From NCBI GenBank assembly GCA_902775075.1, contig CACYKX010000021.1, positions 1 to 23,710 on the forward strand: a stretch of 23,710 nucleotides of DNA. Reading direction: 5' to 3'. Shown one piece after another: positions 437-17,794 of this stretch. The notes below the pieces were generated by a model, which searched no databases, was not told the origin of the DNA, and worked only from the letters and a program-made list of their open reading frames with translations. Position 1 is the first letter of the stretch. Every line of letters begins with the position of its first letter. The position numbers and the translations under genes were made by a program. The stretch is from an uncultured Prevotellaceae bacterium (GTDB lineage Bacteria; Bacteroidota; Bacteroidia; Bacteroidales; Bacteroidaceae).

Positions 437-1759
437 ATGAAGTTATCAGTAAATAGATTTAAATCCATTTTTGAGCTTGAGAACTTCGAGTTTAAACCGC
501 TGACAATGCTTACTGGCATCAATAGCAGTGGTAAGACTTCGCTTGTGCAAAGCCTGCTACTGTTGAAGCAGACTTTGGAGAGTGAATCGAAGGAGGCGCT
601 TATCCTTGATGGTAAGTACATATCGGCAAGCAGTGTGCACGAGCTAGTGTTTGGTAAAGATGAAACCGACCTTTTTGCCTTTACCATAGAACTGGATAAG
701 GCGGATTTGCAGAAACTGAGTGTATTTGACGAGAATAGAATCACATATATTAAATATAAAGTCAGTTTCCATGTGAACAGTGGCGTCTTTGTGAGGTCGG
801 TGGATGCTGACATGGTGATAAACAAGGTGGCTCTGGGGCTCTCGTTATTACTCGATGAAAGTATAAATGATGGCAGAAAGTATAAGGTTACACCTAAAAA
901 ATTTATGGTTAGACAGGGTAACTCTGAAGTGGATTTCAGCAAGCCATTTAATGTAGCTTTTTCGAACTTCTTTCCTCAGTTTGCATCAAGGCCTGACCCC
1001 AATGGTGATTTAACTATCAGTATGCCTTTCATGGACGAGGTGATGAAACTTGTTTCCGCTTATTTTGCCAACATCTATTATGTCGGTCCATTGCGCGTGA
1101 AGCCTGAACCTATCATCAGCTATACGAATGACAACTTCAAGAATGTGGGCGGCGATGGCCTTTTTACACGATTCGTTCTTCATAATCGGAAAGATGATAT
1201 GGTGAATGCCAAAGAGAATCTCCTTCAGGCCACCAGCAGGTGGATTTGCAAGGAACTTGAATTGGCAGATTCGATAGAGACTATCAAGGACGGTACGAGT
1301 TCTTATCGTGTGGTATTGAGGAATAAGGGCGTTGATGTGGACCTGTGCCATATAGGATTAGGGGTGAGTCAGATATTGCCTATTATTGTTCAGGGATTGT
1401 TAGTGCCGGAAGGTGGTACGCTGATTGTGGACTCGCCAGAAGTTCATATGCACCCATCTGTTCAGGCTGATCTGATAGATTTCTTTATTGAACTGGCCAA
1501 AAACGGCAGGAAGGTTGTGTTTGAAACACATAGCGACCACATGATTACCAGACTGAGAAGAAGAATTGCAGAGGGGCTGGATCCTAATATCGTAAATCTT
1601 TGTTTCGTGACGGGAACAGAAAGTGGCAGTACTTATGCCAGCCTCGGTATTGACAATACTGGTACATTCTTTGGAGGATTGCCTGATAAGTTTATGAACA
1701 CTCAGGACATAGACTTCCGAAAGATTGTTGAGGCCAAATTTGCTCAGCACAAGAGATGA
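437..1759 (+). CDS. AAA ATPase of the DUF3696 type (ABC/OLD-like), probable defence ATPase
   Basis: A 440-residue ATPase, normal length for this family. It opens with a beta strand and an RFKSI segment, followed by Walker A GINSSGKT at residues 27-34. The C-terminal half has an ABC-type signature GLGVSQ at 307-312, a Walker B strand LIVDSPEVHMHPS with D332, and the ETHSDHMITRLRRRIAEG block from 363, which is the hallmark of DUF3696 proteins. Such ATPases act as sensor or regulatory subunits of two-gene anti-phage modules. The next gene overlaps its last four bases (ATGA), so the two are surely co-translated. The start is the only reasonable ATG: an earlier ATG at 418 ends after five codons. 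The ATP-binding part looks intact. Confidence 0.85.
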   Translation: MKLSVNRFKSIFELENFEFKPLTMLTGINSSGKTSLVQSLLLLKQTLESESKEALILDGKYISASSVHELVFGKDETDLFAFTIELDKADLQKLSVFDENRITYIKYKVSFHVNSGVFVRSVDADMVINKVALGLSLLLDESINDGRKYKVTPKKFMVRQGNSEVDFSKPFNVAFSNFFPQFASRPDPNGDLTISMPFMDEVMKLVSAYFANIYYVGPLRVKPEPIISYTNDNFKNVGGDGLFTRFVLHNRKDDMVNAKENLLQATSRWICKELELADSIETIKDGTSSYRVVLRNKGVDVDLCHIGLGVSQILPIIVQGLLVPEGGTLIVDSPEVHMHPSVQADLIDFFIELAKNGRKVVFETHSDHMITRLRRRIAEGLDPNIVNLCFVTGTESGSTYASLGIDNTGTFFGGLPDKFMNTQDIDFRKIVEAKFAQHKR

Positions 1760-2556
1760 AACGTACCATAGCAATAGATTTACCGGTGTTGTTGCAAGGG
1801 AATATCCATCATGTGGATGTACCCTTGCTGTATGATGTGCTGGGAAAGATAAAAGGCTTGAAGAATGTGGAGGTCTTGTTCTGTAATGATGACTTGCAGA
1901 TTCTATTTGCCAATGATTATGCTTTTTCTGGAAATATCTTGAAATTTCTCTCTGATGTGAAGTTGTCAGAATACGAAGAGACTTCGAGGAAAGAAAACTT
2001 GACTTATACTCCGGACATTGTGGCTGGTCTAGAGAAAAATATGTCAAATGCTGTTTATCTTCAGCTTTGTGTGATTCATACGAATGACACTACTGGTAGC
2101 GAAATCACTTTTACGGGTTTTATACCCAGATTCTCGGAGAAGTTCAAATTAAAGACTATGAGGGATAAGAAGACAAGGCCTCATGAAACGGTAATCATCG
2201 AATCGGGGGAAGATGCAAATGACTGGATAGAATCTTGTAAACCTTCCCTGAGCGAGTTGAAACATAAGGGAACAACAGGAACTTCTGCCAGGGGAGTTGT
2301 GTCGCCTTTTACTTCATTATTTAAGATAGGCAAGGAATATGCTGAGAGTTTGCTACAGCGGGCATATCTGGAATCGGAAGATAATGCAGTATTCCCCCAC
2401 TATTTATATACGTGGGATCCTGAGGCTGGTACGTTTATAGAATTCAGGCATGAGAATCATGAGAATGACAGTGAGCACAACTATCATGGCAGGGATATGA
2501 GTGAGGCGGAGTATAAGGATGTGCCGAGTCATATTCGAGAGAAATATCATAGATAA
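1756..2556 (+). CDS. Unrecognised 266-aa partner of the DUF3696 ATPase; possible effector
   Basis: The start codon overlaps the stop of the ATPase gene (ATGA), so this is its translational partner. I do not recognise the family. The N-terminal ~130 residues look like an alpha/beta fold. After a low-complexity linker (KGTTGTSARG, about 173-182) comes a C-terminal part with the segment YTWDPEAGTFIEFRHE and, further on, YHGRD. The spacing W-D-x3-G...E...H-G-x-D is loosely like the cytotoxic domains of colicin E3-type and barnase-like RNases. That resemblance is weak but would fit an effector controlled by the ATPase. There are no membrane segments. A 67-bp gap without an obvious promoter follows. 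Confidence 0.6.
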   Translation: MKRTIAIDLPVLLQGNIHHVDVPLLYDVLGKIKGLKNVEVLFCNDDLQILFANDYAFSGNILKFLSDVKLSEYEETSRKENLTYTPDIVAGLEKNMSNAVYLQLCVIHTNDTTGSEITFTGFIPRFSEKFKLKTMRDKKTRPHETVIIESGEDANDWIESCKPSLSELKHKGTTGTSARGVVSPFTSLFKIGKEYAESLLQRAYLESEDNAVFPHYLYTWDPEAGTFIEFRHENHENDSEHNYHGRDMSEAEYKDVPSHIREKYHR

Positions 2557-2623
2557 AGATGCCGAATGATGTATGTCCAGTAGTTTTTGATAGATAGGGT
2601 GCCGATTAGAAAAAACACTAATA

Positions 2624-4753
2624 ATGATTACTGATTTTAGCAATGGTGAATTCATAAAGCAGACATTCTCCTACGAATCGCTGATGAAGAGGAGGGTGAA
2701 GAAGCATGCCTCTGTATTCCAGCCAATACTGGAGGCTATTAGCAATGCATTGGAAGCCACAGAAGGGAAGGGCGACAAAATTGTTATAAGACTAAAGGTT
2801 TCGCAATCTTTGTTTGAAAATAAGTATTCCTACAATTGTATTGAAGTGGAAGATACCGGATGTGGGTTCACCAAAGAGAACTTGCAGAGGTTTTATGATT
2901 TGTTTAATGAAACAAAAGGATATAACAATTTAGGGACGGGTAGAATCCAGTTCCTGCATTTCTTCCAACATACAGAGTTCCACAGTGTTTTTCTAGATAA
3001 AACCGATAAAACCAAGAAACAAATCGACATCTGCCTTTCAACAAAATTCATCAACAACCATAAAACTCCTATCTGGGCGAGTTATCCAAAGGAGGTTCCG
3101 GATGATACGCCAACAGGAACGACTGTCTCTTTCTATTTGCCTTGCGACGACAAGGATAAGGCAAGCTATGAGGAGATGACCACAGATGATGTGTTCGACA
3201 AGGTGTTTACACATTATCTTGGACGCTTGTGCTTGTCGAAAAACAATATGCAAAACATCGGCATAGAGTTTTATGTTAATGGTGTTCACGACACAAACAA
3301 AGACAAAACCATTTCTGAACAAAATATACCCGATGTTGATTACCATGATGAAGTTGAAGTTCACTATAAAAAGATGAACGGTACTGGTGATGGTTTTATT
3401 GAGCAGAAAGAATCGGAGGCTTTCGAGATAAATTCTTTTTTGCTTCCTTCTGCAGTCCAGAAACGGAATGAGATAAAACTCACGAGTAAGAATGAGACGG
3501 TTGAAGCCGCCAATGTAGATTTCTCTTTTGTTGGGAAGGCTCGCATAAAAGAAGGAAAGAACATTCTTTGCTTGATTTCGAGCAGTTTTCTTACCAACCA
3601 AGACACTGACCTTAGAGGTAACCTGAATATCTATACCAAAGAAGAGTTTCTCAAGGAAAAAGGCAAAATGGATTTTGAGGTCAAGCATTTGTTTATCGAT
3701 GATGTGCAAGAGAAAGTGACCGATAAAATCACCACACATTATCCCGCTATCAATAAGATAAAAGAGGAAAGTGAAGAGGATATAGACCAGGTGGTGGAGG
3801 ATTTTTCGTTGGATAGCGGCATAGTAAAGAGAATGGGGCGTAAGACGGGTGAGAAAGTATCGGATTTTCTAAGCCGTTATTATGATGCGGAGGCTGAAGT
3901 GGAGAAAGACAGCTCCAAGAAAATGAGGGAAATATTCTCTTCTTTCAGGCAGTTGGATCCTTCATCAAAAGGCTTCAGCAAGTCGTTCAAAGCCAAAGTT
4001 GGTGCAATTAACTCGCTAATTCCGGTCAAAAGCAAGTCTGGCTTGTCGCGATACATATCGAGCAGGACAGCGGCAATGAACATGCTGCAGATGATTTTGG
4101 ATAAAGACTTGGAGTGTCAGTTGGCGGAAAATAAAAGGAGAGACAATGAAAAGCTTATACATGACATGCTGTTCCCGCAGGGGTCAATGGATGCATTGGA
4201 AAGCAATTTGTGGATGCTGAATGAGGATTTCATTCATTTCAGGGGTTACTCCAATTTTAGGTTAAAAGATTTGCAAGCAGATGGCGTGCCCATCATACGT
4301 GAAGACCTAACGGATGAAGAGAAAAAGACTCTGACTGAATACAACAAGGATATGTTGGGCAACAAGCCCGACATCCTGCTATTCCCCGAGGAACACAAAT
4401 GTATCATTATTGAGCTTAAGAGTGACACAGCAGACCCTGCGAAATATCTCAGTCAAGCCGTTCAGTATGCCGGTTTGTTGAGGGCTTTTGCAAAAGATGA
4501 ATTTGTGATTGACAATTTCTATCTTTACTTGATTGCCGAGAGTTTCAATTTTGAAAGAATACGCATTGCTAATCCATCATTCAGGATAGCTCAGTATTTG
4601 GACTATGTGTTCTTGCCAAACAGCCCTGTCTATGGCGGAACCAGAGGCGAAGGTGCCCTTTATATGGAAGTTCTAAAATATTCAACCCTGATTAAGCGAG
4701 CAAAAATAAGAAACAGTATCTTCACAGAGAAGTTATTTGGGGAAGAGGAGTAA
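2624..4753 (+). CDS. GHKL-type ATPase fused to a C-terminal PD-(D/E)XK nuclease
   Basis: A 709-residue two-domain protein. The N-terminus holds a GHKL (Hsp90/MutL/MORC-like) ATPase with the N-box around LEAISNALEA (E37, N41), the G1 box DTGCGF at 77-82 and the G2 box GTGRIQF at 104-110. A charged central region (about 370-550) may be coiled. The C-terminus has a restriction-type nuclease core: KPDILLF with D583, IIIELKSD with E597 and K599, then a helix with QAVQYA, matching D-Xn-E-X-K...Q. GHKL ATPases fused to such nucleases are known in prokaryotic conflict and restriction systems related to MORC proteins. I infer an ATP-gated DNA-cutting role. It heads a tightly packed row of genes (6 bp to the next), and both sets of motifs are intact. 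Confidence 0.85.
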   Translation: MITDFSNGEFIKQTFSYESLMKRRVKKHASVFQPILEAISNALEATEGKGDKIVIRLKVSQSLFENKYSYNCIEVEDTGCGFTKENLQRFYDLFNETKGYNNLGTGRIQFLHFFQHTEFHSVFLDKTDKTKKQIDICLSTKFINNHKTPIWASYPKEVPDDTPTGTTVSFYLPCDDKDKASYEEMTTDDVFDKVFTHYLGRLCLSKNNMQNIGIEFYVNGVHDTNKDKTISEQNIPDVDYHDEVEVHYKKMNGTGDGFIEQKESEAFEINSFLLPSAVQKRNEIKLTSKNETVEAANVDFSFVGKARIKEGKNILCLISSSFLTNQDTDLRGNLNIYTKEEFLKEKGKMDFEVKHLFIDDVQEKVTDKITTHYPAINKIKEESEEDIDQVVEDFSLDSGIVKRMGRKTGEKVSDFLSRYYDAEAEVEKDSSKKMREIFSSFRQLDPSSKGFSKSFKAKVGAINSLIPVKSKSGLSRYISSRTAAMNMLQMILDKDLECQLAENKRRDNEKLIHDMLFPQGSMDALESNLWMLNEDFIHFRGYSNFRLKDLQADGVPIIREDLTDEEKKTLTEYNKDMLGNKPDILLFPEEHKCIIIELKSDTADPAKYLSQAVQYAGLLRAFAKDEFVIDNFYLYLIAESFNFERIRIANPSFRIAQYLDYVFLPNSPVYGGTRGEGALYMEVLKYSTLIKRAKIRNSIFTEKLFGEEE

Positions 4754-4759
4754 TGTATT

Positions 4760-6265
4760 ATGAAGTATTCGATTGATAATTATATAGGACAAGAGGTAAA
4801 GAGAACATCCTTTTTGCTGAAAAAATCAAATGGAGAATATCATTTTCTGTTTAGTATCATTGAGCGATTGGAAGATGATGCTGCGGAAAATGTATTGGGT
4901 CAGAAACAATCGAAAACATATTGTGATGAAAAAGCAGATGGAAAGAAAGATAAGATTTACGTTGAAACTGATTTTGTGACTTTAGACCAAACAACTGCCA
5001 ATGAACCGTGGGAATGTTATGTTGTTGATGGAAGGAATATTAAGGTTGAAGGAAATGGATATCAATGGAAGGATAATGGGGAAAGCAAGAAGATACCGTC
5101 AAATAGGGATGAGAAGACAGAATTGATGGTGATGGTGCCTGATCGTAGATGTTCTGCTTTTGTGAAGTATTGTAAACCTCAAGAACCGTCAGAGGCTGTG
5201 AAAACAGTATTGGGTAGTGATGGCTTGAAAGAACAACTGAAAAGCTTGTCTGAACGAGTGTTGGGCTATGACCTGAATATTCATAAAGGATATCTCGGCT
5301 GTTTTATGCAGGTTTGCTATAATCCCATTTTTAAGGATATCGATTTTATCGAAGATGCTCAAGAAGCTGGGGTTTATGTAAGAGTTAATTACAGAGGTGA
5401 CCAACGCCCGCCGTTACATATTTGCATTCAAGGATTGAGCAGAGAGGGCGATGTTATGGGCGTTGAAGATTGTTGGTTGCAAGGTGAATTTTTAAACCGC
5501 ATTCAGTTTAAAACAAGATATCCATTATTGGAAATTGTGGTTCTTGACAAGGATGGTGATGTCTTAGACAGCTTTAAGAATCTGACTTTCATCCATAGCA
5601 TTCAATTTGGGATGAATGTGAAGTCGAAAGATGTGGCTCTACTCGATGAGAATGGTAATGTAGTGAGAATGGTTGAGAAATTCTCGAATGAAAGGCCGTC
5701 GATTATTGGTACAAAAATCAAAAAGGAGAGTATTTGGGACAGCTCTCAAGAATTTGAATATGAAAAACTCGAACGCTCTCTTGACTTTGTGTTTTTTGAT
5801 GGTGAAAAGGAGAAAATTGACCAGAATCGTCAAAAAGCAAGGGAATGTGTTGAGCGAATTCTAAACCAAACACAAAATGTTTGCTATATCTGCGACTCCT
5901 ATTTTAATGTAAAAACACTGTGCCAATTTGTTGCGCCCATCAAGGTGGCCGCTGTTGAGGTGAGGGTAATATCGAGCAAAGAAAGACTTGGTGCCGATGA
6001 TAAAGAAAAACTGAAACAAAAAGCGGAAGAAATGAGGTTGAAAGAAATATCAAATGTGTATTGTAGGTTGTTGAAAGGTGAAAAGTCAGCATTGCATGAC
6101 CGTTTTATTGTAGCTGATGACAAAGTGTGGATGTTGGGTTGCTCGTTGAATGAGTTTGGCGAACGTGCCACTACGTTAATCCGAGTGCCATCGCGTTATA
6201 GTAAAAGGTTGATTGAATGGGCGGAGAATTATTGGAAAAATGAAGACTTGACAGAAGCATTATGA
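4760..6265 (+). CDS. Phospholipase-D-like protein with a large N-terminal domain, resembling the VPA1262 family
   Basis: A 501-residue protein starting six bases after the GHKL gene. The N-terminal ~330 residues, including HICIQGLSREGDVMGVEDCW, resemble what I recall of the VPA1262-family N-terminal domain; this part is from memory. The C-terminal ~140 residues look like one PLD-type half: a strand VCYICDSYF, a strand VEVRVISSKE, then LHDRFIVADDKVWMLG (H446) and GCSLNEFG. The usual PLD signature HxK is replaced by H-D-R, and the same variant occurs in the next gene, so the pair may form a composite active site or a non-catalytic binding surface. Its stop overlaps the next start by four bases, indicating translational coupling. 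Confidence 0.6.
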   Translation: MKYSIDNYIGQEVKRTSFLLKKSNGEYHFLFSIIERLEDDAAENVLGQKQSKTYCDEKADGKKDKIYVETDFVTLDQTTANEPWECYVVDGRNIKVEGNGYQWKDNGESKKIPSNRDEKTELMVMVPDRRCSAFVKYCKPQEPSEAVKTVLGSDGLKEQLKSLSERVLGYDLNIHKGYLGCFMQVCYNPIFKDIDFIEDAQEAGVYVRVNYRGDQRPPLHICIQGLSREGDVMGVEDCWLQGEFLNRIQFKTRYPLLEIVVLDKDGDVLDSFKNLTFIHSIQFGMNVKSKDVALLDENGNVVRMVEKFSNERPSIIGTKIKKESIWDSSQEFEYEKLERSLDFVFFDGEKEKIDQNRQKARECVERILNQTQNVCYICDSYFNVKTLCQFVAPIKVAAVEVRVISSKERLGADDKEKLKQKAEEMRLKEISNVYCRLLKGEKSALHDRFIVADDKVWMLGCSLNEFGERATTLIRVPSRYSKRLIEWAENYWKNEDLTEAL

Positions 6266-6878
6266 GTCTGGTTAATCTAACAAAAGCATCCCCATCTGAA
6301 GAGTTTACCCATAATTTTGATGAATATGGGGATTACCTCTATTTTGAACGGAACGACAAAGATAAACCTTCATACTATGAAAACATATTGGGAATAGCCA
6401 AGAAGAGAATTATCATTATAGACCCCCATCTGTCAATAAATGAAGACCCTGTTCTGTTTGAGAAAGTTAAAGCTGAGAAAGTTGATGTAAAAATAATGGC
6501 GGTTTGTAAAAAAAGTGAAAATGAAGCTTATGCAAAATCGTATTTTGATGCTATTCAAGATAAACTAAAAAAGAATCTCAATGAATACGATTTCTCATTC
6601 TGTTGTTTTAAGCAAAAGCCTTATAAAAAAATATGGATCAATAATTTCAGTTATGAAGAGGAACCTATTTATATTTGGCATGACAGATATCTTTTGATTG
6701 ATAATAGGGCCTTTTTATAGGTGCCTCGATGAATAATCAAGTATCGGGTGAAAAAAGTTTTGGCATCTTTGAAGTGAAAGACTCTGGTCAGATGGTTAAA
6801 TTTATTGATGATTTTTTTACAAACTATGAAGGACTATTGGTTCATCGGTATAACGGTTGGCATTTTCATCACAAATAA
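6262..6878 (+). pseudogene. Second PLD-like HDR-motif protein, interrupted by a one-base frameshift
   Basis: The ORF opens at 6262 and stops at 6718-6720 after 152 residues, directly after WHDRYLLIDNRAFL. The missing end is present in another frame: from about 6712 the DNA reads FIGASMNNQVSGEKSFGIFE and continues to TAA at 6876-6878. Adding one T to the T5 run at 6712-6716 joins the halves into RAFFIGASMNN and a protein of about 205 residues. The N-terminal part has the PLD-like strand IIIIDPH. The product would be a short PLD-like protein homologous in layout to the C-terminus of the preceding gene. Either the gene is broken or slipping (homopolymer), or one T was lost in sequencing or assembly. 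Confidence 0.75.
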
Positions 6879-6887
6879 TTTGGCGCT

Positions 6888-8685
6888 ATGAATTTGGAAG
6901 ATTACCGCAAACAAATATACGCTTATTGGTCGGAATCGAACCTGCAAGGTGAATTGTGCCTGTTGGATGCCATTGAGAAGCATCAGCAAAAGAAATATCT
7001 AACCGATGAGCAAAAAGAGGCTTTTGATAAATTGGTGGATTGGATTATGAAGGAAAAGCCGGGCCTGAATGATTTGTCTGATGAAATAATAGGGAAAAGG
7101 TTCCGCGTAAGAAAATACGAAAAGATAAAAAACATAAAGAACCTTGCTTTTTATGAGGTTGGAAAGCGATATAGTAAGAAATCGAGCAAAGCAACGATGA
7201 ATGATTTCGAATTCTTTTCGGAACACATGTGTCACGGCTTTGACCTGAGTTATAAGGTCAGCAAAGCTGTATTGTCGAAGATAGTGGACAGTATTGATGG
7301 CAAAAGCGAATCGTTTTTGGATAATTGCCGCTCAATGCATGATAGGAGAGGGAATTTTGCGAAATATTGCTTAAATGAATTGCAAGACGAAAAGACAGAT
7401 GCTGAGATTATTGAGATGATGAATCCATACAATGGTGGCGATTATATCGAATTGCCGTTAGGCATTTATGACTTGTCTTATTTCTTGCTTCGTGACAAGC
7501 GTTATGATTTGTATGCACGATTGCTGTCAAATCTTTATTTTTTTTCCATTGCAAGGGGCGATGATGTGTTGGATGCATGGTGTGGATGCGGCTTTTGCTA
7601 TATGGAAAGAAATCGAAAGATTGAATCCTAAGCGGATAAATGTTATACAATATTTGTTGCGAAACCGAATACTGAAATTGTTGGGCACCGAACCCAATCA
7701 GTTGGATAGAAACGCTCGAAACGAATACATTCAAGAAAAAGACAGAAAACTGGGCGAACAATTGCTGAATGATTGGATCAATCGTGCCGATAAATATGCC
7801 AATCGTCTGGTCAAATTGTCAATAAATAGGTTTGGGGCAAGTGACACATCTGTATGGTACAGCCGGAAAAAAGCGCAATTGACAGGAAGAGATCCAAAGT
7901 TTATTAAATTTGAACTTGCTGCTTTAGATAAAATAGAGAAAAGTTTGAAATCGCAATTGGATTTAACGGATGGAATGATTGCCGATAAAGACTTGGATAC
8001 GCTTATATATTATGCTAGCGTTGCGGCTGAAAATGATTCGTTGAGCAAGGATTTCTATGTTGACTTGATTAAAACTATCTGCCAGCATATCTATTGTGAC
8101 CGATATGTTCGACCGCTGAAGCTTGACAACGAGTCATTCCAAACGATGCGTAATGTATATCGGTGTGTTTTAATAGGGAAGGTTGACGGTATTCAGACAA
8201 TGTCAACTTATAGGCAAACTTCAGAAAACGGCCAAAATCATTATAGTAATATTTTCCGTAATGCGATGGGTGACTCGTGGTGGTTGTCAATCATGGTGTT
8301 GATGGCAGAGGAAACGGGAGATGTTGACTATTTTAGAAAAATAACAGGCATTCTTTTGAAATTGGCCAGTTTTGAAAAATCCTTGTTTAACGAATATTAC
8401 TTTCTTCCATTATATATAGCAGAACTTATCGTTGTTCAAGTGTTAAAAGGGGAGAAAAATGCGTTTGAGAATTGCCTGATTACGAGAGCGTGCAATTTGT
8501 ATCATGTTTTGCGCATATTATTAGCCAATAATGGAGTTTTGAGCGATGACAATATCAAACTGCTCAAAAACAGGGTTGAAGTTGAATGGCAATACGAGAA
8601 ATCTTTGGCTCAGCAGTATAAGCAGCCAACAGATTATTTGGAAGAATATTTGAAGAAAGCAATTGGAAATAACGAAATCAAGTAA
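6888..8685 (+). pseudogene. Long helical protein of about 598 aa, with an apparent frameshift near 7540-7605; unknown function
   Basis: Translation from ATG 6888 runs 247 residues to a TAA at 7629-7631, while the +1 frame carries a continuous protein from about 7575 to TAA 8683-8685. The overlap reads sensibly if GDDVLDAW in the first frame is joined to DAAFAIWKEIERLNPKR in the second, i.e. one surplus base around 7585-7595, although the T8 run at about 7538-7545 is another possible site. The combined protein is rich in predicted helices, has no recognised catalytic motif and may be a repeat-type scaffold. It starts nine bases after the PLD-like gene and is followed one base later by the next start, so it belongs to the same operon. 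Confidence 0.65.
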
Positions 8686-8686
8686 A

Positions 8687-9127
8687 ATGATTTTTCCCAA
8701 ATATAAGATGGGGAAGGACAATAGATATGGTCCTACACCACACAATCGTTTTTATCAACCTGCTTATTACCACAATCCCGTTGACGCTAAAAACGGGAAA
8801 GGCAAAAAGGCTAAGCAAAGAGAACATGAAGATAAAACACATTGGGTGTTGAAGAAACCGGAGCAATATCACGTGTTTTTAACAGGTGATATAAATGAGC
8901 TGTTTGACGACAGAGGAATATACTCTGTGTTGGATAATTGCAAAGTTGTTTTTGGAGAAGATGGTCAGCGAATTGCCATTTTTGAAACGCCAAGAAATGA
9001 TACATGGCATGGTTTCCCAATCTTTTCTTGGGAAAAACCCATTAGTGACGCCATTGTCATTAAGATGAAAGACAAAGGATTGATAAGCGAAGTAACCAAA
9101 CAAAGAATAATTGATCATAGGATATGA
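8687..9127 (+). CDS. Unrecognised 146-aa protein
   Basis: I take ATG 8687, one base after the stop of the preceding gene, as the start; the frame is open a little further up only through a TTG at 8663. The product begins MIFPKYKMGKDNRYGPTP, is rich in Lys, Tyr and His, and has a basic Gly/Lys stretch (KNGKGKKAKQ) around residue 35. The C-terminal half looks like a small alpha/beta fold with a conserved-looking WHGFPIFSW segment. No membrane segment or known motif is visible. Its end overlaps the next gene by four bases (ATGA), so it is translationally coupled and probably a subunit of the same system. Confidence 0.7.
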   Translation: MIFPKYKMGKDNRYGPTPHNRFYQPAYYHNPVDAKNGKGKKAKQREHEDKTHWVLKKPEQYHVFLTGDINELFDDRGIYSVLDNCKVVFGEDGQRIAIFETPRNDTWHGFPIFSWEKPISDAIVIKMKDKGLISEVTKQRIIDHRI

Positions 9128-10458
9128 AGCCGATAAGTTTAACAATTCAAATGGATGCATACGATTGCTACATATATGGCGGTTATGTGTTTTTCATAAT
9201 GCAAGATGGAAGAATCTTGTATGGTTCATATCCACAGATTATTTCCCGTCTTGAGCACAAATATCAAGAGTTTTCTGGCTTGATTAAAATAGCCTTCTTA
9301 CGTAATGACTATTACCATTCTAATGCTGCTAAAGCATTAATTCAGATCCCATCCGTAAAAGAATGCATACGTCAAGAATGGGAAAGAATTGCAAAAACCC
9401 AAGTGTTTTATCTTGAATTTGATGAGATAGAAGATGCCTTAGATGTATTGTGCGAACTGCCTTCTACTCCTTTGGACACTAAAATTTATGGAATGCGACT
9501 ATTTGTGGGTTGTATGAACGGAATGTATGAGGTGAGGCTTTGCCCTGATGGTCGAAATCTTAATCCGCAAAAAATAGAGCGGTGTTTTGATGGAAAAGTG
9601 ATTCATCTGAATGCGAAGTACGGTGAGATTGTATTGTCATTGGGATTTGATGGTTTGGTGGCTGAGGGTATTGATATTGATGGCAATGATGTTACAAAGG
9701 TGAGCGACAAGAATGTGTTTGCGCAACGTTCACATAGGACTTCGTGGGCTAATTCTGACATTATGAATTATAGCACACCCACTGAGTTTTCATATTTTAG
9801 AAATAATACGATAGAGCGAAGCCGAACTGGGCAGAAAAAGTTTTGGGAGAAGTATGAGTCAAAACAAATTACAAATTTTGCCACTCATGAGTATCCTATG
9901 GAGGGAATGATTTCAAGATCGGGACTTAAGAAAGAAGATATTGTAGCCTGCTTTAATAGTCAGGAAAAAAGTTTCATGCAGTTAAAAGACGGCTCTATTG
10001 TGTCAATGAACATCAAAGAAGAGGAGAGTGATGGTAATGAGACCAGCCCTGTATTATCAACAAAGAAAGTCTCTTTGGCTTCGGCAGAAATGACAAAAGC
10101 TTGTGGTAGAATGCTATCGGGTACAACAGTTCCTAAGGGATGTGCTATCGAGTTTTTTGACAAAGTGGTGCTAATCCAAAATTCACATATGCAAGTTATA
10201 GAAAATCAGGAAGTGATGAAGGTTCGCTCGTTTATGAACGCATACCGATTCCAAGACATTCTTTCTGTAACAAAACAAAAGGAAATTACACTTCATGCTT
10301 TAGACACATTGGATGTTTCGAGAGAAGTTAAAGCCAGGTATAAAACCAGTTCTTCACCCGACATTGACATTAGTATTGACCTCGATTCTGATTTTTTGAA
10401 TAAGATTTCCTCGCCAAAAGTTGATCAGAACGATGAAGATGACGAATTACCTTGGTGA
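9124..10458 (+). CDS. Unrecognised 444-aa protein, beta-rich, possible propeller-like scaffold
   Basis: The start overlaps the preceding stop. The first ~210 residues alternate short strands with Gly/Asp turns (for example MQDGRILYGSYP, GMRLFVGCMNGMYEVRL, EIVLSLGFDGLVAEG), a spacing that suggests blades of an incomplete beta-propeller or another sensor-type beta-fold. The middle is Ser/Thr/Asn rich. A later strand-rich part includes SFMQLKDGSIVSM, and the tail is very acidic (DQNDEDDELPW). I know of no named family. Its place between the PLD-like/helical genes and an OLD-like ATPase gene suggests a recognition or assembly subunit; this is inference only. Confidence 0.65.
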   Translation: MKPISLTIQMDAYDCYIYGGYVFFIMQDGRILYGSYPQIISRLEHKYQEFSGLIKIAFLRNDYYHSNAAKALIQIPSVKECIRQEWERIAKTQVFYLEFDEIEDALDVLCELPSTPLDTKIYGMRLFVGCMNGMYEVRLCPDGRNLNPQKIERCFDGKVIHLNAKYGEIVLSLGFDGLVAEGIDIDGNDVTKVSDKNVFAQRSHRTSWANSDIMNYSTPTEFSYFRNNTIERSRTGQKKFWEKYESKQITNFATHEYPMEGMISRSGLKKEDIVACFNSQEKSFMQLKDGSIVSMNIKEEESDGNETSPVLSTKKVSLASAEMTKACGRMLSGTTVPKGCAIEFFDKVVLIQNSHMQVIENQEVMKVRSFMNAYRFQDILSVTKQKEITLHALDTLDVSREVKARYKTSSSPDIDISIDLDSDFLNKISSPKVDQNDEDDELPW

Positions 10459-10481
10459 AGCGATTAAATTGATTATTCTAT

Positions 10482-10769
10482 ATGGCGAAACTTGCACATC
10501 TTAAAATATCTCACTTCAGGGGAATAGAATCCTTTGAACAGAAGTTTGTGAATGGTATAACTTGTATCATTGGCCGAGGTGATTCTGGGAAATCGACCAT
10601 TCTTGATGCCATTGCTTATTTGTTCTCTCAGTCGTGGAGTGTACATTTAAATGACAGTGACTTTTATAAGTGTAACACTAATATTCCAATAGTTATTGAA
10701 GGCGTTATTTCATCTGGGAAAACGTGCTTGACCCGGCCAGAGAGCGTCTCGGCAAGCCCATCATGGTGA
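10482..10769 (+). pseudogene. OLD/AAA_15-type ATPase, truncated after ~78 residues by a recombination junction
   Basis: The product begins MAKLAHLKISHFRGIESFEQ, followed by Walker A GRGDSGKST at residues 31-39 and LNDSDFYKCN, the standard opening of OLD-family/AAA_15 ATPase-nucleases, whose members are normally over 500 residues and carry a TOPRIM nuclease. Homology stops near VIEGVISS at about base 10716. The remaining 17 residues are an out-of-frame reading of an M15 peptidase fragment, so the signature, Walker B and TOPRIM parts are missing. It starts 23 bp after the 444-aa gene and was presumably the last gene of that operon. As it stands it cannot hydrolyse ATP in the normal way. Confidence 0.85.
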
Positions 10770-10954
10770 ACAGCGGCTACCGCTGTCCTTTGAAGAACAA
10801 GGCCGTGGGAGGCGTTCCCAATAGCCAACACCTGAAAGGCGAGGCAGCCGACATCACTTGTGCCGAAATGACAATTCCGGATGCTCCTAATAGTAAGTTG
10901 CAAAAGTATATTCTGACAGATGCAGGGAGAGAGCTTGGCAAAATCAAACATTGA
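10717..10954 (+). pseudogene. Internal fragment of an M15-type peptidase (D,D-carboxypeptidase/endolysin-like)
   Basis: In the frame of 10724, the reading ENVLDPARERLGKPIMV, NSGYRC and NSQHLKGEAADI is the typical middle of M15 peptidases, including the Zn-binding His and Asp of SxHxxGxAxD. About 48 residues match; neither the usual N-terminus nor the distal catalytic His region is present. The matching DNA (about 10717-10865) is visibly GC-richer than the neighbouring operon. The frame continues for 25 more residues of different character (LQKYILTDAGRELGKIKH) to TGA at 10952-10954, which look like a second junction. Start and end are therefore breakpoints rather than gene ends. The source could be a prophage endolysin or a chromosomal M15 gene. 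Confidence 0.8.
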
Positions 10955-10979
10955 TAGAGCATAGGAACTCGGATAAGAC

Positions 10980-11523: not shown

Positions 11524-12300
11524 ATGAAATTCCAGTGTTACGACCTTCATCAGTGCGAAAAGGGCGAAAGAATCCAGGTGACACTTCGGGGGAATGCTGC
11601 TAACGTAAGATTGATGGATAGTACTAATTTTAACTACTATCGTCAGGAGAGAGGCCATCGTTATATCGGTGGTTTGGCAACACAATCTCCGATGGTTCTT
11701 ACGGTTCCTCGTTCCGGACATTGGTACGTCACTGTCGATCTGGATGGTTTGAGAGGCTCTGTAAGTACATCAATCCGTAAACTCCCATCTCCGTTGCCTG
11801 TGTATAACGAACCATCTCTGGCTTCAGTCCCGTCCCTTATCCATAAAGAGGAAAGTCCGTTTGGAACTTCTGAAGATAATTGTGTGGAGTACGACGTGTT
11901 TATTTCACATACCTCTGAAGATAAAAAAAACGTAGTGCGGCCGTTGGCACAGGCTTGGGTGAATCATGGCCTGAAAGTATGGTATGATGAATTTGAGTTG
12001 AAGATTGGAGACAGCCTAAGACGCAAGATTGATAGGGGGCTGGCGAAAAGCCGTTTTGGTATAGTCGTTCTTTCCAAAGATTTCATTAAGAAGGGCTGGA
12101 CCAATTATGAATTAGATGGAATTATATCTAAGGCAAATACGGGCGAGCAGGTTTTGTTACCAATCTGGCATGGAATAACAAAACAGGAAGTCTTGGATTA
12201 TTCACCCTCTCTGGCTGACAAGGTGGCTCGTAATACGGCATCTTGTACGGTCGAGGAGATTGCAAAAGAGATTGCAGAACTGATTAGGGGAAACAGATAA
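11524..12300 (+). CDS. DUF1883-TIR protein, probable NAD-consuming defence effector
   Basis: A 258-residue protein. Residues 1-85 form a DUF1883 domain (MKFQCYDLHQCEKGERIQVT, ... SPMVLTVPRSGHWYVTVDL), a small beta-sandwich often found before TIR domains. Residues 122-258 are a bacterial TIR domain: YDVFISHTSEDK, KVWYDEFELKIGDSLRRKID, VVLSKDFIKKGWTNYEL and a final helix pair. E196 in the NYEL segment is at the position of the catalytic glutamate of NADase TIR domains. TIR effectors typically deplete NAD+ on infection and cause abortive death. It lies between the 94-aa protein and the AbiH gene on the same strand (51 bp to AbiH), which suggests one three-gene unit. Confidence 0.9.
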   Translation: MKFQCYDLHQCEKGERIQVTLRGNAANVRLMDSTNFNYYRQERGHRYIGGLATQSPMVLTVPRSGHWYVTVDLDGLRGSVSTSIRKLPSPLPVYNEPSLASVPSLIHKEESPFGTSEDNCVEYDVFISHTSEDKKNVVRPLAQAWVNHGLKVWYDEFELKIGDSLRRKIDRGLAKSRFGIVVLSKDFIKKGWTNYELDGIISKANTGEQVLLPIWHGITKQEVLDYSPSLADKVARNTASCTVEEIAKEIAELIRGNR

Positions 12301-12351
12301 TGGAAAGTTCTTCATATGGAGGAAGGGGAATAGGTACAAATCCCGGGCGCT

Positions 12352-14094
12352 ATGAATAAGGCACATCTGTTACAGGCGATAACGGCGCTTCAGGATGCCG
12401 TAAATGGCGGCAATAGGTTGCGGATGTACCAATGCGCCTATGCGTTGGATAATTTGTTTAGAATGGAGGTTCCAGACCCGCTAAACGATTGCGAGTCCGT
12501 GTTGATGCGCTTCAAGATGGCAGAGGCGATGACTGCCTTTTTCGTGGCAATAGACGACAAGTCGCAGGCCGGCACGCTCAGGAACAGGATATCAGCACAT
12601 TATCAGGCAATCAGGAAATCGAAGAATTATTCAGTTGCTGAAAAGCACGAATTGAAGGAGATTTTGGGACGAATCAAGACGATGGTGCCTCCAGTTTCCA
12701 GAAAGGCACACCAGCGAATTGACAAAAACTCGGAGAGGTATAAACGAGATGTTTTCGTTTTCAGGGCGTTCGATTGGTTCGCAGAAGTTCATGGTATGCT
12801 GCCATTGGAAGGATTGAATTATTTGAAGCCTTTCAAAATAGAGGCGCTGCTTTCAACTCTCCCAATCACTATGCCAAAACGGCAGGTGGTGGAGGAGATG
12901 ACAAAATACTGCTACGACAAAGGCGGTTCGCTTGCACCAAGAGCGATGCAGAGGCATTACGATGTGGCAGGGAAACAGGCAAAACACCTGTATGTGATAG
13001 GCAACGGCTTCGACCGCTATCATGGAGCCCAATCGGGTTATATGAGTTTCCGTCGCTATCTCTTCAAGAGGAATCCGTTGATTGTCGGCTTTTTTGACCT
13101 TTACTTCGGCCCCCGCTCGTTGGACCGGAGTTTCTCTACACCGGTGGGTTGGTGGTGGTGCGTGCAGCCTTATGCGTATAGGCACGATGAATATGGACTG
13201 CGTTATCCAGTGGCTACATGGAGCCATACCCATCTATGGCGCGACTTCGAGACCAATCTTAGCGAGCTGAATAGGGAGAAGGTGTTTGACCTGCTGGATA
13301 TGCAGTTATCTCGTGTCGATGAGGGTGAAGAGGAATTAGACTATTCAGATTATTTCGAGCCACTAGACAATATATCAGAAGCTGTTACAGCGTGTACGTT
13401 TGAAATGAAGTATCATTTCCATCGTTGGATTAACACACTTCACTATGCCAAAGGGTTTAAGAAGAAGATGCTGGATATTGACAAGGATGCTTTGTTCTTG
13501 AACTTTAACTACACTTTGTTCCTGGAGACCGAGTATGCCATTCCTGCCGAGCAAATATGCTATATTCATGGATGCAGGAGGGATAAGTTTGGGTCGTTAG
13601 TGTTAGGTCACCATACAAAGGATGAGACCGCATTTGAAGAATGGAAACATAAAAACCAGAACCGTCGCCGGTACAGAGATGTGCAGAAAGACAGCAAAGG
13701 CCGTTATTTTAAAAACGACAAGCTGGCATATCTGGCGTTCTTCCTAAAGAACGAAAAGACGGGCAACTGGCGACTCCCGATACGATACTATGCAGTTGAA
13801 GCTGCAGAGGAACGCTTGGAGAAATACTATGATGCGAATTACAAAAACACGAAAAGCATCATCGACGCACATATGGGTTTCTATGACTCACTTTGTGATA
13901 TCGAAAAGGTGACGATCATCGGATGTTCGCTTGGAGCGGTTGATATGGACTACTATAAACAACTTAAGTCTTCGGTTAAGAGTGATGCACAGTGGGAATT
14001 CAGCTATCATTCTGATGAAGACAGGAAGAGAATTGAGAAATTCTGTAAAGAACTCCATATAGAAACTGGATGTGTTCGCACATTCAAGATGTAA
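12352..14094 (+). CDS. abiH: AbiH-family abortive infection protein with an N-terminal helical extension
   Basis: A 580-residue protein. The AbiH core spans about 210-580: LYVIGNGFDRYHG at 213-225 (nucleotide-binding-like glycine loop), YMSFRRYL, an FETNL segment, LFLNFNYTLFLE, ICYIHG and IIGCSLGAVDMDYY near the end. These are the conserved blocks of the bacteriophage AbiH family, which blocks phage growth by a mechanism still unclear. The first ~90 residues are an extra helical domain related to the 94-aa protein encoded at 11214-11498, joined by a linker of about 120 residues. The shared domain links the two genes and the TIR gene between them. The gene is intact and is followed directly by a structured RNA-like segment. 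Confidence 0.88.
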   Translation: MNKAHLLQAITALQDAVNGGNRLRMYQCAYALDNLFRMEVPDPLNDCESVLMRFKMAEAMTAFFVAIDDKSQAGTLRNRISAHYQAIRKSKNYSVAEKHELKEILGRIKTMVPPVSRKAHQRIDKNSERYKRDVFVFRAFDWFAEVHGMLPLEGLNYLKPFKIEALLSTLPITMPKRQVVEEMTKYCYDKGGSLAPRAMQRHYDVAGKQAKHLYVIGNGFDRYHGAQSGYMSFRRYLFKRNPLIVGFFDLYFGPRSLDRSFSTPVGWWWCVQPYAYRHDEYGLRYPVATWSHTHLWRDFETNLSELNREKVFDLLDMQLSRVDEGEEELDYSDYFEPLDNISEAVTACTFEMKYHFHRWINTLHYAKGFKKKMLDIDKDALFLNFNYTLFLETEYAIPAEQICYIHGCRRDKFGSLVLGHHTKDETAFEEWKHKNQNRRRYRDVQKDSKGRYFKNDKLAYLAFFLKNEKTGNWRLPIRYYAVEAAEERLEKYYDANYKNTKSIIDAHMGFYDSLCDIEKVTIIGCSLGAVDMDYYKQLKSSVKSDAQWEFSYHSDEDRKRIEKFCKELHIETGCVRTFKM

Positions 14095-14408
14095 CCCTGC
14101 AGCAGAGCAGGGCCCCACTCATTCGTTTGGACAAGAGTATTGGTGAACCTCGCTGGAGGACGACCCGCCAAACGACTTGTTAATTCCAGCCTTGGCCGGG
14201 GTTCTATTGTATGAGTGGACTATTCACTCTACGGAGTGATGGCTTCCCTTTGGGATGCCGCGTTTGCCCGTATGGACAAATGCCGACTGTAGTCCTTCTG
14301 TGGCTACAGCGTTAATAAACCACTGGTGCTGGTAGGCCCGAAAGGGATTCGACCGCTCTGGGTTAATGGTTATGAGGGCAAGTCTGGGAACGGACTTGCC
14401 CTCTTTTT
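14095..14408 (+). ncRNA. Candidate structured non-coding RNA of ~310 nt, unclassified, ending in an intrinsic terminator
   Basis: There is no ORF here, but nearly every stretch pairs. Seen by eye: CCCTG/CAGGG at the very start; a long-range CCACTCAT (14115-14122) with ATGAGTGG (14211-14218); nested CGTTTGG (14124-14130) with CCAAACG (14168-14174); CCTC/GAGG (14148-14159); TCACTC-UACG-GAGTGA (14224-14239) with a cUACGg tetraloop; GGC..CCC/GGG..GCC (14241-14259); GCGTTTG/CAAATGC (14260-14283); CTGTAG/CTACAG (14287-14309); CCC-GAAA-GGG (14337-14346); then a strong terminator. It does not carry the marks of tmRNA, RNase P, 6S or SRP RNA that I know. No clear promoter separates it from abiH, so it may be cut from that transcript. 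Confidence 0.6.
14374..14408 (+). terminator. Strong intrinsic terminator
   Basis: A perfect 11-bp stem, GAGGGCAAGTC (14374-14384) with GACTTGCCCTC (14393-14403), an 8-nt loop and a TTTTT tract at 14404-14408. It ends the candidate RNA and probably the transcript of the TIR/AbiH module. Confidence 0.92.
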
Positions 14409-14476
14409 AAGAGAACACATTACAAATCAGATGACGCAGTGTGTCGTGTACAAGAGGGGAAATCGATATCAATAGT

Positions 14477-14504
14477 AAGGCTGATGCTCAAGCATTAGCC
14501 TTTT
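14477..14504 (+). terminator. Second terminator-like hairpin, member of a repeated AAGGCTG...GCCTT family
   Basis: AAGGCTGATGCT (14477-14488) pairs with AGCATTAGCCTT (14491-14502) with one G-U pair and a 2-nt loop, followed by TTTTG. Related hairpins occur at 15856-15886 and 17011-17039. It may be a backup terminator or a mobile 3'-end repeat. The 120 bases after it, up to the promoter at 14627, show nothing else. Confidence 0.7.
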
Positions 14505-14626
14505 GTGTCTTGAGAAAAACGCGGAAAACTTGGATATGTGTCATGTTTTTATCTATTTATGTCATTTATTAATTTATCCTTATAGTATGAAAAAACGGAA
14601 GTGTTACGTTCGGAAGGTTGTTTTTA

Positions 14627-14658
14627 TTTGGCTAGACCAATAAAAGTGCGTATCTTTG
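14627..14658 (+). promoter_or_regulatory. Bacteroidetes-type sigma-A promoter
   Basis: TTTG at 14627-14630 and TATCTTTG at 14651-14658 are separated by 20 nt, matching the Bacteroidetes -33/-7 consensus (TTTG, TAnnTTTG). It would drive the HA-domain ORF and the 256-aa gene downstream. Confidence 0.8.
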
Positions 14659-14677
14659 CATTTGGAAATTGAATGTG

Positions 14678-14711
14678 AAAGGAATCAGGGGGACAAAGGA
14701 ATCAGGGGGAC
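14678..14711 (+). repeat. Perfect tandem duplication of a 17-bp unit
   Basis: AAAGGAATCAGGGGGAC occurs twice head to tail (14678-14694 and 14695-14711) in the expected leader of the transcript from the 14651 promoter. Its G-rich character resembles the loosely repeated AGGGAATAGGGGGATG after the gene ending at 16863. The role is unknown; it is probably a minisatellite seed. Confidence 0.85.
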
Positions 14712-14768
14712 AGGAACTTTTATACAAGCCATTAGATACAATATATCCCCTCAGGAGTCTTTATTTAA

Positions 14769-15008
14769 GTGCAGCATAAATTGAAAAACGGTTTTCGATC
14801 ATATGTGGCATATCATGCCAAGGTGTGCAAAGAAGAATTATTCGTTCCACAATGGGGACCGAAGGTTGCATCGCAGGACCTACTCAATTGGTTAAAGAGA
14901 AACAGGAAGAAGATGAATGCTGGGGAGTTGCTGGAGCCAAGGCTGGAGAAGTTTAAGGTGTTGCTGGCATTGGGGGAAGAATACAGGAGGAAGAATCAGT
15001 ACCGATAA
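14769..15008 (+). CDS. 79-aa ORF with a helicase-associated (HA) domain-like sequence; probable helicase remnant
   Basis: The frame is open only from a GTG at 14769, directly after an in-frame TAA, so the start is poor. The content, HAKVCKEELFVPQW ... DLLNWLKRNRKKMNAGELLEPRLEKF, follows the HA-domain pattern (H-x-VP...LG-W...QR...G-L...R...L...G), a nucleic-acid-binding repeat at the C-terminus of some bacterial helicases. The last 27 residues match the 37-aa ORF at 231-344. No helicase motor is present nearby, so it is likely the tail of a deleted helicase gene. With a good promoter at 14627-14658, expression of a small protein cannot be excluded. Confidence 0.5.
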   Translation: MQHKLKNGFRSYVAYHAKVCKEELFVPQWGPKVASQDLLNWLKRNRKKMNAGELLEPRLEKFKVLLALGEEYRRKNQYR

Positions 15009-15026
15009 TGGATTTCTCTGAAGAAT

Positions 15027-15797
15027 ATGGAAGAGTTCAAAGAACTATATATGGAGGAACAGGCGCTGCTGAAAAGAATTCAGCAGTTCGGAAAGACGCG
15101 ACAGCAGGAGACCCCGGACCGGATTGAAAAGGTCACGTTGCTATTGGTATTCCGTATCTTTTCAAGCCTTTATTCTGCGTTGCTTTTAACTTTAGCCGCT
15201 CTAAAAAAAAGTAAGATGTCTTTCTTCCAGCTGCCGATCGGAATTATTTTACGTTGCTGCTTTGCAGATTGCTTGTTTGCTCTTTATGTTCAGCGGGTAG
15301 ATACGAAGCGTGCGATTGAGGAGCTTGAAATTAGGACTATTGAGTATGCCAACTCCATGCTTGAACGGAAAGAGGTCTACAGGGACCAGGTGAGAAGTAT
15401 CGCGAAGGAGTTCGACGATGACCTGATTGACCATTTCTGGGAGCTGACAATGGAAGACCATTTTCTGGGTTTGTTGACTTTTGACGAGAATATGGAAAGG
15501 TTGACTTTGGCTAAGCAATCGAAAACGCAACTGAAGGAAGCGGGATTCTCGAAGACGAGAAGCGTTGCAACCAAAGACTTGGTAGAGTTTTTGGTCGGTA
15601 TTCCTGAGTTGGAATCGGTGACAACGCGATTGTATCATTACTTTAAGTATTTCTCACAGTATGAGCATTTCTCGGAGAATGGACAAGGCGATGTATTGGC
15701 ATCGTCGAAAGAGGATGGGAATGACAATATTCACTGGCCGTCGGCTGTCAGAGCTCTGTGTGCTGGGGTGGAAGAGGTGATGAAGTATAATCGTTAA
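15027..15797 (+). CDS. 256-aa helical protein, possibly HEPN-like (DUF5677-type); unknown function
   Basis: ATG 15027 lies 18 bp after the HA-domain ORF. The protein is almost entirely helical. Residues about 42-92 (FRIFSSLYSALLLTLAAL, then IILRCCFADCLFALYVQ) are hydrophobic and could be buried helices or a hairpin near a membrane. A second helical pair follows at the end (YHYFKYFSQYEHFS and WPSAVRALCAGVEEVMKYN). This layout of an Arg-bearing helix and a late Y...S...H helix recalls DUF5677/HEPN-like proteins, which are often toxins or RNases in defence loci, but the usual catalytic R-x4-6-H is not obvious. I treat the family as unassigned. Confidence 0.65.
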   Translation: MEEFKELYMEEQALLKRIQQFGKTRQQETPDRIEKVTLLLVFRIFSSLYSALLLTLAALKKSKMSFFQLPIGIILRCCFADCLFALYVQRVDTKRAIEELEIRTIEYANSMLERKEVYRDQVRSIAKEFDDDLIDHFWELTMEDHFLGLLTFDENMERLTLAKQSKTQLKEAGFSKTRSVATKDLVEFLVGIPELESVTTRLYHYFKYFSQYEHFSENGQGDVLASSKEDGNDNIHWPSAVRALCAGVEEVMKYNR

Positions 15798-15850
15798 GTG
15801 AAAGGTTAAGTGTGAAAGGTGAAGAGTGAAGGGAGAAGGGTAAAAAATGA
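15798..15850 (+). repeat. Degenerate GTGAAAGG-type purine repeat after the 256-aa gene
   Basis: Right after the stop codon come loosely repeated GTGAAAGGT, TGTGAAAGGTGAAG and AGTGAAGGGAGAAGGG units. The same family is seen at 16901-16965 and, on the other strand, as the ordered 11-bp array at 23443-23574. Confidence 0.7.
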
Positions 15851-15855
15851 AAATG

Positions 15856-15886
15856 AAGGCTGGCGCTTTTGCATCGGCCTTTTTTG
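15856..15886 (+). terminator. Terminator hairpin of the AAGGCTG...GCCTT family
   Basis: AAGGCTGGCGC (15856-15866) pairs with GCATCGGCCTT (15871-15881) with two wobble pairs and one mismatch, followed by a T-run to 15886. It ends the transcript of the 256-aa gene. The remaining intergenic DNA to 16071 has TAACCCTAAC-like short repeats and, at 15991-16018, a GAACACGAAT...ACACGAAT stretch related to the 92-bp repeats at 18922-19158. Confidence 0.75.
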
Positions 15887-17183: not shown

Positions 17184-17204
17184 TAAGGTCAAAAAGTTAG
17201 TCTT

Positions 17205-17792: not shown

Positions 17793-17794
17793 AT

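What the first reader, a model, noticed from the sequence alone, without database searches (positions are those of the whole stretch)
2624..10720. Unassigned multi-gene conflict system: GHKL-PD-(D/E)XK nuclease, two HDR-type PLD-like proteins, helical and beta-rich subunits, OLD-like ATPase
Seven genes with spacings of -4 to 23 bp combine two different ATPase classes (GHKL and OLD/AAA_15), a restriction-type nuclease and two PLD-like proteins sharing an H-D-R variant motif. The remaining three have no family I can name. I know of no named anti-phage system with this set. The fixed order and overlaps imply one complex or pathway.
Basis: partly seen in the sequence, partly recalled or inferred. 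Interest (0 to 1): 0.8.

Follow-up and report, generated by a model that had tools for sequence, protein, structure and literature searches.

The report
Patchwork defence island, not one system
The seven adjacent genes are most likely not one seven-part immune system but several separately travelling bacterial defence modules packed together, one of which, a three-gene set with two phospholipase-D-like proteins and a helical scaffold, recurs in distant bacteria and has no name that we could find.

Summary
The genes at 2624-10720 are real and tightly packed, but only four of seven are intact: the small PLD gene and the ~600-aa helical gene are frame-broken at runs of T, and the 'OLD' gene is a 79-residue stub. 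The set was not found elsewhere. (1) The GHKL-nuclease has the paraMORC3 layout (Iyer 2008); none of 80 relatives' loci shows a VPA, small-PLD, helical, 146-aa or propeller relative, and 12 of 80 lie directly behind a type I R-M specificity gene. (2) VPA1262-type PLD protein, small HDR protein and helical protein form a three-gene module: intact without the others in another Prevotella-genus genome, in matching order on three proteobacterial plasmids; three more lack the small gene. (3) The 146-aa protein and the 444-aa WD40-like propeller are a separate pair in 5 of 5 loci. Best reading: a decaying defence island. The triad may be an unnamed PLD-nuclease system; recruitment of the propeller pair to it here is not excluded.

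The parts
437..1759 (+). NsnB-like AAA_15/21 ATPase (Menshen-type), upstream neighbour
   Evidence: PADLOC NsnB 4.8e-60
1756..2556 (+). NsnC-like protein, weak match, upstream neighbour
   Evidence: PADLOC NsnC 2e-8, residues 187-264 only
2624..4753 (+). Module 1: paraMORC3-type GHKL ATPase with C-terminal RecB/restriction-fold nuclease, 709 aa, intact
   Evidence: HATPase_c 3.1e-9; invariant D583, E597, K599 in 25 sequences; HSDR_N in 12 of 25 members at E<=1, best 1.9e-5
4760..6265 (+). Module 2, subunit 1: VPA1262_N-family protein with one HDRx4D PLD half-site, 501 aa, intact
   Evidence: NF040700 111.1 bits, cut-off 80; HDRFIVAD at residue 446
6262..6720 (+). Module 2, subunit 2: small HDR PLD-like protein, first piece (152 aa), frame-broken
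   Evidence: HDRYLLID at residue 140; weak VPA1262_N 1.5e-4, below cut-off; intact 199-aa relative in L132, 25% over 118 positions, 5e-8
6714..6875 (+). second-frame continuation of the small PLD gene (54 residues)
6888..7631 (+). Module 2, subunit 3: helical (alpha-solenoid) protein, N-terminal piece, frame-broken
   Evidence: HEL profile 1.5e-118
7468..8685 (+). Module 2, subunit 3: C-terminal piece in another frame (coding from about 7540)
   Evidence: HEL profile 3.1e-212
8687..9127 (+). Module 3, S146: 146-aa protein, no known family found
   Evidence: 37-51% identical to 5 relatives, each next to a propeller gene
9124..10458 (+). Module 3, B444: WD40-like beta-propeller protein, 444 aa
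10482..10720 (+). stub of an OLD/GajA-type ATPase (about 79 residues)
   Evidence: PADLOC GajA PDLC04168 8.9e-30, model 1-79 of 570
10727..10945 (+). recombination scrap: peptidase M15 piece joined to a Fic-like_C piece
   Evidence: PF08291 2.7e-16; PF21247 1.2e-5, 25.5 bits, below its cut-off of 27

Best explanation
The stretch is a defence island in which independent modules have been laid down head to tail on one strand and are partly decayed. Module 1 is a one-gene paraMORC3-type ATPase-nuclease. Module 2 is a three-gene unit: a VPA1262-type PLD protein, a small PLD-like protein and an alpha-solenoid. Module 3 is a two-gene unit: a 146-aa protein and a WD40-like propeller. The seventh gene is an OLD stub. 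Shown: what recurs and what does not in the loci read, and the broken genes. Inferred for module 1: ATP-driven closure of a GHKL dimer on DNA gates the C-terminal nuclease. Inferred for module 2: PLD enzymes need two active-site motifs at a dimer interface (general knowledge), and here each protein brings only one HDRx4D motif, so the VPA1262 protein and the small protein would pair to build one nuclease site. The alpha-solenoid would be the scaffold or sensor that keeps it off until infection. Inferred for module 3: the propeller is the recognition part and the 146-aa protein the effector or adaptor. In this copy module 2 is probably inactive as read, because two of its three genes are frame-broken, unless the breaks are assembly errors.
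For: 0 of 80 GHKL-relative loci show VPA, small-PLD, HEL, S146 or B444 relatives at E<=1e-3. 12 of 80 lie directly behind an HsdS-cluster gene, 6 of 80 directly before an HsdR-cluster gene (identity of M, S and R checked in one locus). L132: intact VPA (508 aa) - small HDR protein (199 aa) - HEL (653 aa, 3.2e-26 to the HEL profile), overlapping genes, with glycosyltransferase genes on either side and no GHKL, S146 or propeller relative. Matching order on three plasmids, and VPA directly followed by a 594-659-aa gene on three more. S146-B444 adjacent in 5 of 5 other genomes, behind an AlbA_2 gene in three. Truncated OLD and scraps. Precedents, passages only: paraMORC3 with C-terminal nuclease, a subset standing alone (PMC2292703); the single-gene GHKL nuclease VcSduA protects E. 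coli against phages (PMC12137116).
Against: HEL and B444 may be linked in a second lineage: protein clusters P0152 (HEL, 86%) and P0085 (propeller, 88%) both report a longest contig of 30,610 bases, the same source and three contigs each; that contig could not be fetched. The gaps HEL to S146 (1 bp) and S146 to B444 (-4 bp) look like one operon. The window's HEL and the proteobacterial 594-659-aa proteins show no detectable sequence relation (hhalign probability about 0.1), so the cross-phylum triad rests on VPA homology, gene order, size and, for the small gene, weak similarity. The controls are partly by construction, and its small-PLD profile missed the window's own small gene (which the VPA profile found, 1e-7). 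OLD relatives were not counted there, and ATPases of that broad class do lie within 10 kb in 16 of 80 GHKL loci. No gene here was tested for activity.
Confidence: 0.74

Rival explanations
1. A five-gene system: the VPA1262 - small PLD - solenoid triad has taken up S146 and the propeller as its sensor arm in this lineage; GHKL and OLD are only neighbours. The propeller would bind a phage protein or complex and release the PLD nuclease.
For: Gaps of 1 and -4 bp; clusters P0152 and P0085 share the 30,610-base longest contig; the pair also sits directly behind other genes, AlbA_2-type in 3 of 5 loci, which is what a plug-in part would do.
Against: 5 of 5 other pairs lack the triad within the fetched stretch, and 2 of 5 have no AlbA_2 gene that I can see either; L132 and the six plasmid loci lack the pair.
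Confidence: 0.15
2. One seven-gene system, rare and seen whole only here.
For: Spacing and same strand.
Against: 0 of 80, 0 of 5 and 0 of 7 loci outside the window combine genes of two modules; OLD is a stub; the GHKL family has its own, different neighbourhoods.
Confidence: 0.03
3. NsnB-like, NsnC-like and the GHKL gene (437-4753) form the functional unit, a Menshen relative, and the rest is separate.
For: NsnB-like 4.8e-60 and NsnC-like 2e-8 lie 67 bp upstream of GHKL; after iteration an NsnB-like ATPase profile hit 16 of the 80 loci, at gaps of 36 to 8219 bp.
Against: Positions and strands relative to GHKL vary, and the iterated profile also took in the window's OLD stub, so it draws in AAA_15-type ATPases broadly; 64 of 80 loci have none.
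Confidence: 0.07

Closest known systems
paraMORC3 family (Iyer, Abhiman, Aravind 2008, PMC2292703; passages read)
   Same: N-terminal GHKL ATPase, C-terminal RecB-type E-D-ExK nuclease, Bacteroidetes, lone genes or beside R-M systems
   Different: S5 domain not separately shown here; 12 of 80 relatives' loci have the gene directly behind a type I specificity gene
VcSduA, GHKL-type Shedu, type I-D (PMC12137116; passages read)
   Same: one-gene GHKL plus PD-(D/E)xK architecture; shown there to block phage in E. coli
   Different: the window protein has no Pfam match to the Shedu domain DUF4263; its relatives' nuclease part resembles HSDR_N/Cas4 instead
VPA1262 families NF040700 and NF040699 (NCBIfam); PADLOC candidate PDC-S05
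   Same: 501-aa protein is over the NF040700 cut-off; PDC-S05 matches its PLD part
   Different: NF040699 is a model of 1026 positions, and L129/L130 hold 1131-1140-aa proteins with the domain; here the protein is short and followed by a small PLD gene and a solenoid gene
[not shown]
   Same: predicted fold of the 444-aa protein
   Different: 7-11% identity in the best four rows; fold similarity only; gene partner S146 has no family found
Gabija GajA / OLD ATPases
   Same: first 79 residues of the seventh gene
   Different: everything after them is missing

Membership tests
paraMORC3 | N-terminal GHKL ATPase domain | tested here: met
   PF02518 37.7 bits, cut-off 26.4; N41, D77, G79, G81 and G104 invariant in 25 sequences
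paraMORC3 | S5 domain after the GHKL domain | not tested
   no model of that part was made; assumed from length and from the 2008 description
paraMORC3 | C-terminal RecB-type nuclease with E-D-ExK | tested here: met
   D583, E597, K599 and Q611 invariant; HSDR_N in 12 of 25 members at E<=1, best 1.9e-5 (not among the window protein's own 3 hits); Cas4 model PDLC01250 in 9 of 25 members at E<=0.1, best 0.0042, window protein 0.025 over 574-643
Shedu (VcSduA, type I-D) | DUF4263 nuclease domain (Pfam) | tested here: not met
   the window protein matches 3 Pfam families at E<=1, none is DUF4263; HMMER's filters can lose very weak matches
VPA1262_N (NF040700) | score over curated cut-off of 80 bits | tested here: met
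   501-aa protein 111.1 bits; the small protein's first piece only 20.7 bits, the intact L132 small protein 34.1 bits: not members
VPA1262 long family (NF040699) | score over cut-off 325, model of 1026 positions | tested here: not met
   not among the matches of the 501-aa protein at E<=0.01; the L132 relative scores 26.2 bits
PLD superfamily | HxKx4D active-site motif | tested here: inconclusive
   HDRx4D, R for K, in both proteins; PLDc_2 24 bits against cut-off 27 for the window protein, 33.1 bits, over it, for the L132 relative
Beta-propeller, WD40-like | ring of beta blades in the predicted fold | tested here: met
   [not shown]
Gabija/OLD | complete ATPase plus TOPRIM domain (recalled definition) | tested here: not met
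   95-aa ORF covering model positions 1-79 of 570
Menshen | nsnA, nsnB and nsnC together (recalled definition) | tested here: inconclusive
   NsnB strong, NsnC partial; no NsnA among the rows shown, two lists being capped at 25; the window starts 436 bases before the NsnB-like gene
   0 of 80 GHKL loci, 0 of 5 propeller loci, 0 of 7 other short-VPA loci combine genes of modules 1, 2 and 3 within the stretch read; OLD not counted

The most novel reading that the evidence does not exclude
The VPA1262 - small PLD - alpha-solenoid triad is an unnamed anti-phage system whose nuclease site is shared by two different one-motif PLD proteins, and the S146-propeller pair is a separate plug-in sensor cassette that attaches to unrelated defence cores (AlbA_2-type genes elsewhere, the triad here).
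Probability: 0.2. Interest if true: 0.68.

Novelty: new variant of a known kind. Interest (0 to 1): 0.42.

Why it matters
It replaces a striking but unsupported seven-gene hypothesis with a testable three-gene unit found in Bacteroidota and Proteobacteria, assigns the GHKL gene to an architecture with a phage-blocking precedent, gives a fold to the 444-aa unknown, and shows that tight spacing within a defence island is not by itself evidence for one system.

Tried and rejected

My first placing of the frame break in HEL (near 7600, note) was wrong: the aligned relatives put it at the T run near 7540.
Full report
WHAT IS IN THE SEQUENCE. On the plus strand there are intact ORFs of 709 aa (2624-4753), 501 aa (4760-6265), 146 aa (8687-9127) and 444 aa (9124-10458). 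The gene at 6262 stops after 152 aa; the rest of a PLD-type C-terminus lies in another frame, 6714-6875. The gene at 6888 is split over two frames (ORFs 6888-7631 and 7468-8685). The ten relatives of the second piece are single proteins of 576-598 aa, one of them 99% identical, and alignment puts the break at the T run near 7540. The last gene starts as an OLD/GajA ATPase (8.9e-30 over model positions 1-79 of 570) but breaks off near 10720 and runs into pieces of a peptidase M15 gene (2.7e-16) and a Fic-like C-terminus (1.2e-5, below cut-off). So four of seven genes are intact. Gene labels HEL (helical), S146 and B444 are mine.

MODULE 1, THE GHKL GENE. It has a GHKL ATPase domain and a nuclease end with D583, E597, K599 and Q611 invariant in 25 aligned sequences; 12 of 25 members match HSDR_N at E<=1 (best 1.9e-5) and 9 of 25 a Cas4 model at E<=0.1. 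This is the architecture that Iyer et al. called paraMORC3, of which a subset, mainly in proteobacteria and Bacteroidetes, stands alone without conserved neighbours (PMC2292703, passages). A protein of similar layout, VcSduA, protects E. coli against phages as a single gene, and variants in its ATPase and nuclease residues lose this (PMC12137116, passages). The window protein lacks a Pfam match to the Shedu domain DUF4263, so I do not file it as Shedu. Of 105 confirmed relatives in the genome collection the best 80 loci were kept. Profiles of VPA, small PLD, HEL (two profiles), S146 and B444 hit none of the 80 at E<=1e-3. Controls in the same call: the VPA profile (window plus L081-L083) also found the three plasmid proteins not in it (L120-L122, 1.7e-50 to 3.6e-44); the proteobacterial HEL profile found L122 (1.2e-6); S146 and B444 hits outside the window are the loci that went into, or were found with, those alignments; the small-PLD profile, made from the plasmid genes, missed the window's own small gene, which the VPA profile found (1e-7). 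OLD was not in this test. 56 of the 80 have at least 3 kb on both sides and 56 at least 8 kb downstream, so contig ends do not explain the absence there. In 12 of 80 the gene lies directly behind an HsdS-cluster gene on the same strand (gaps -28 to +28 bp), and in 6 of 80 an HsdR-cluster gene follows directly; 16 of 80 have some M, S or R cluster within four genes. Cluster names rest on a check of one locus, L015, where the M, S and R genes match solved type I subunits.

MODULE 2, THE TRIAD. The 501-aa protein is a VPA1262_N member (111.1 bits, cut-off 80) with one HDRx4D motif; the small protein has one too. A tblastn search found relatives on seven plasmid records, taken as six distinct loci because the two B. 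glumae genes are 99.8% identical. In L081, L082 and L083 the order is VPA, small gene, 639-658-aa gene. In L120, L121 and L122 the 594-659-aa gene follows VPA directly. In L122 a 260-aa gene comes third; it has no HDR motif. The small gene of L083 also looks frame-broken: its HDR part is in another frame, as read by eye. A search of 289 genomes of the genus of L002 (Prevotella ruminicola) with the HEL alignment gave one hit. There, L132, the window-type triad is whole: VPA 508 aa (29% identical to the window's over 502 positions), small HDR protein 199 aa, HEL 653 aa (3.2e-26 to the HEL profile), with overlapping ends and a DUF2971 gene 1 bp on. Glycosyltransferase genes lie on either side; no GHKL, S146 or B444 relative in 19.9 kb. 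In the order-wide sample HEL was in 0 of 393 genomes, and of 395 genomes of the phylum 2 passed the VPA1262_N cut-off, both with long single proteins, so the short type is rare. Annotated neighbours within the fetched stretches include Abi, TrlF, SIR2 or ubiquitin-like genes in L081, L082, L083, L120 and L122, none such in L121, and in L132 I saw none but DUF2971 (six of its genes searched). Between the Bacteroidota and proteobacterial large proteins no sequence relation was detectable.

MECHANISM OF MODULE 2 (INFERENCE). From general knowledge of the PLD superfamily, two motif copies must meet at a dimer interface. Each protein here brings one, so the two would share a site. Where the small gene is absent, VPA would pair with itself. 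The HEL model, made on the 598-aa relative P0149 (AF2 pLDDT 82.8, pTM 0.80), is a nearly all-helical solenoid without a specific match; I take it as scaffold or sensor. I give about 0.4 that the triad is a defence system with this kind of shared site; the statement of modular make-up is far firmer.

RESULTS AGAINST. Clusters P0152 (HEL) and P0085 (propeller) share a longest-contig length of 30,610 bases, source and contig count, which hints at a second lineage with triad and pair together. Three other HEL clusters, with longest contigs of 15,232, 22,424 and 301,534 bases, have no propeller cluster of equal longest contig. This is weak evidence either way. An iterated NsnB-like profile, which also took in the window's OLD stub, hit ATPases in 16 of 80 GHKL loci, the nearest 36 bp behind the GHKL gene (L070), so a link of GHKL with some ATPase of that broad class is not excluded.

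SETTING. Upstream lie NsnB-like and NsnC-like genes. Downstream are a DUF1883-TIR gene, an AbiH gene, a DUF2971 gene and an AbiEi/AbiEii pair. The stretch from 437 to about 18,616 therefore reads as a defence island with turnover.

VERDICT. Observation partly confirmed; the seven-gene interpretation fails in the loci that could be read; a smaller unnamed three-gene unit and a two-gene propeller unit remain of real but moderate interest.

Noticed in passing
L001-L080, for example L015:7241-14451: paraMORC3-type GHKL genes sit directly behind a type I R-M specificity-cluster gene in 12 of 80 loci and directly before a restriction-cluster gene in 6 of 80, as if part of the operon (names checked in L015 only).
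   Followed up: partly
window 437-2556: NsnB-like and NsnC-like genes (Menshen relatives) lie just upstream of the GHKL gene; no NsnA was seen among the rows shown.
   Followed up: partly
window 10720-10960: Junction scar: OLD stub, peptidase M15 piece and Fic-like_C piece follow one another. Two of the three AlbA_2 genes beside S146-propeller pairs (L117, L119) also end in Fic-like_C.
   Followed up: partly
L083 12564-13246: The small PLD-like gene of the Azospirillum triad looks frame-broken too, at another place than in the window; decay, assembly error or something regulated.
   Followed up: no
window 11524-18616: Further defence genes: DUF1883-TIR (PDC-S66), AbiH, DUF2971 (PDC-S31), AbiEi/AbiEii.
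   Followed up: no
L132 7965-8978 and window 16072-16863: A DUF2971 gene follows the intact triad by 1 bp in L132, and another DUF2971 gene lies in the window's island.
   Followed up: no
L089-L111: Many ~280-325-aa single proteins in Bacteroidota share the PLD part of VPA1262, all below that family's cut-off.
   Followed up: no
window 19305-23369 (-) and about 23400-23640: Large FN3-rich protein with a type IX secretion tail (Por_Secre_tail), then a short tandem-repeat stretch visible in the ORF translations.
   Followed up: no
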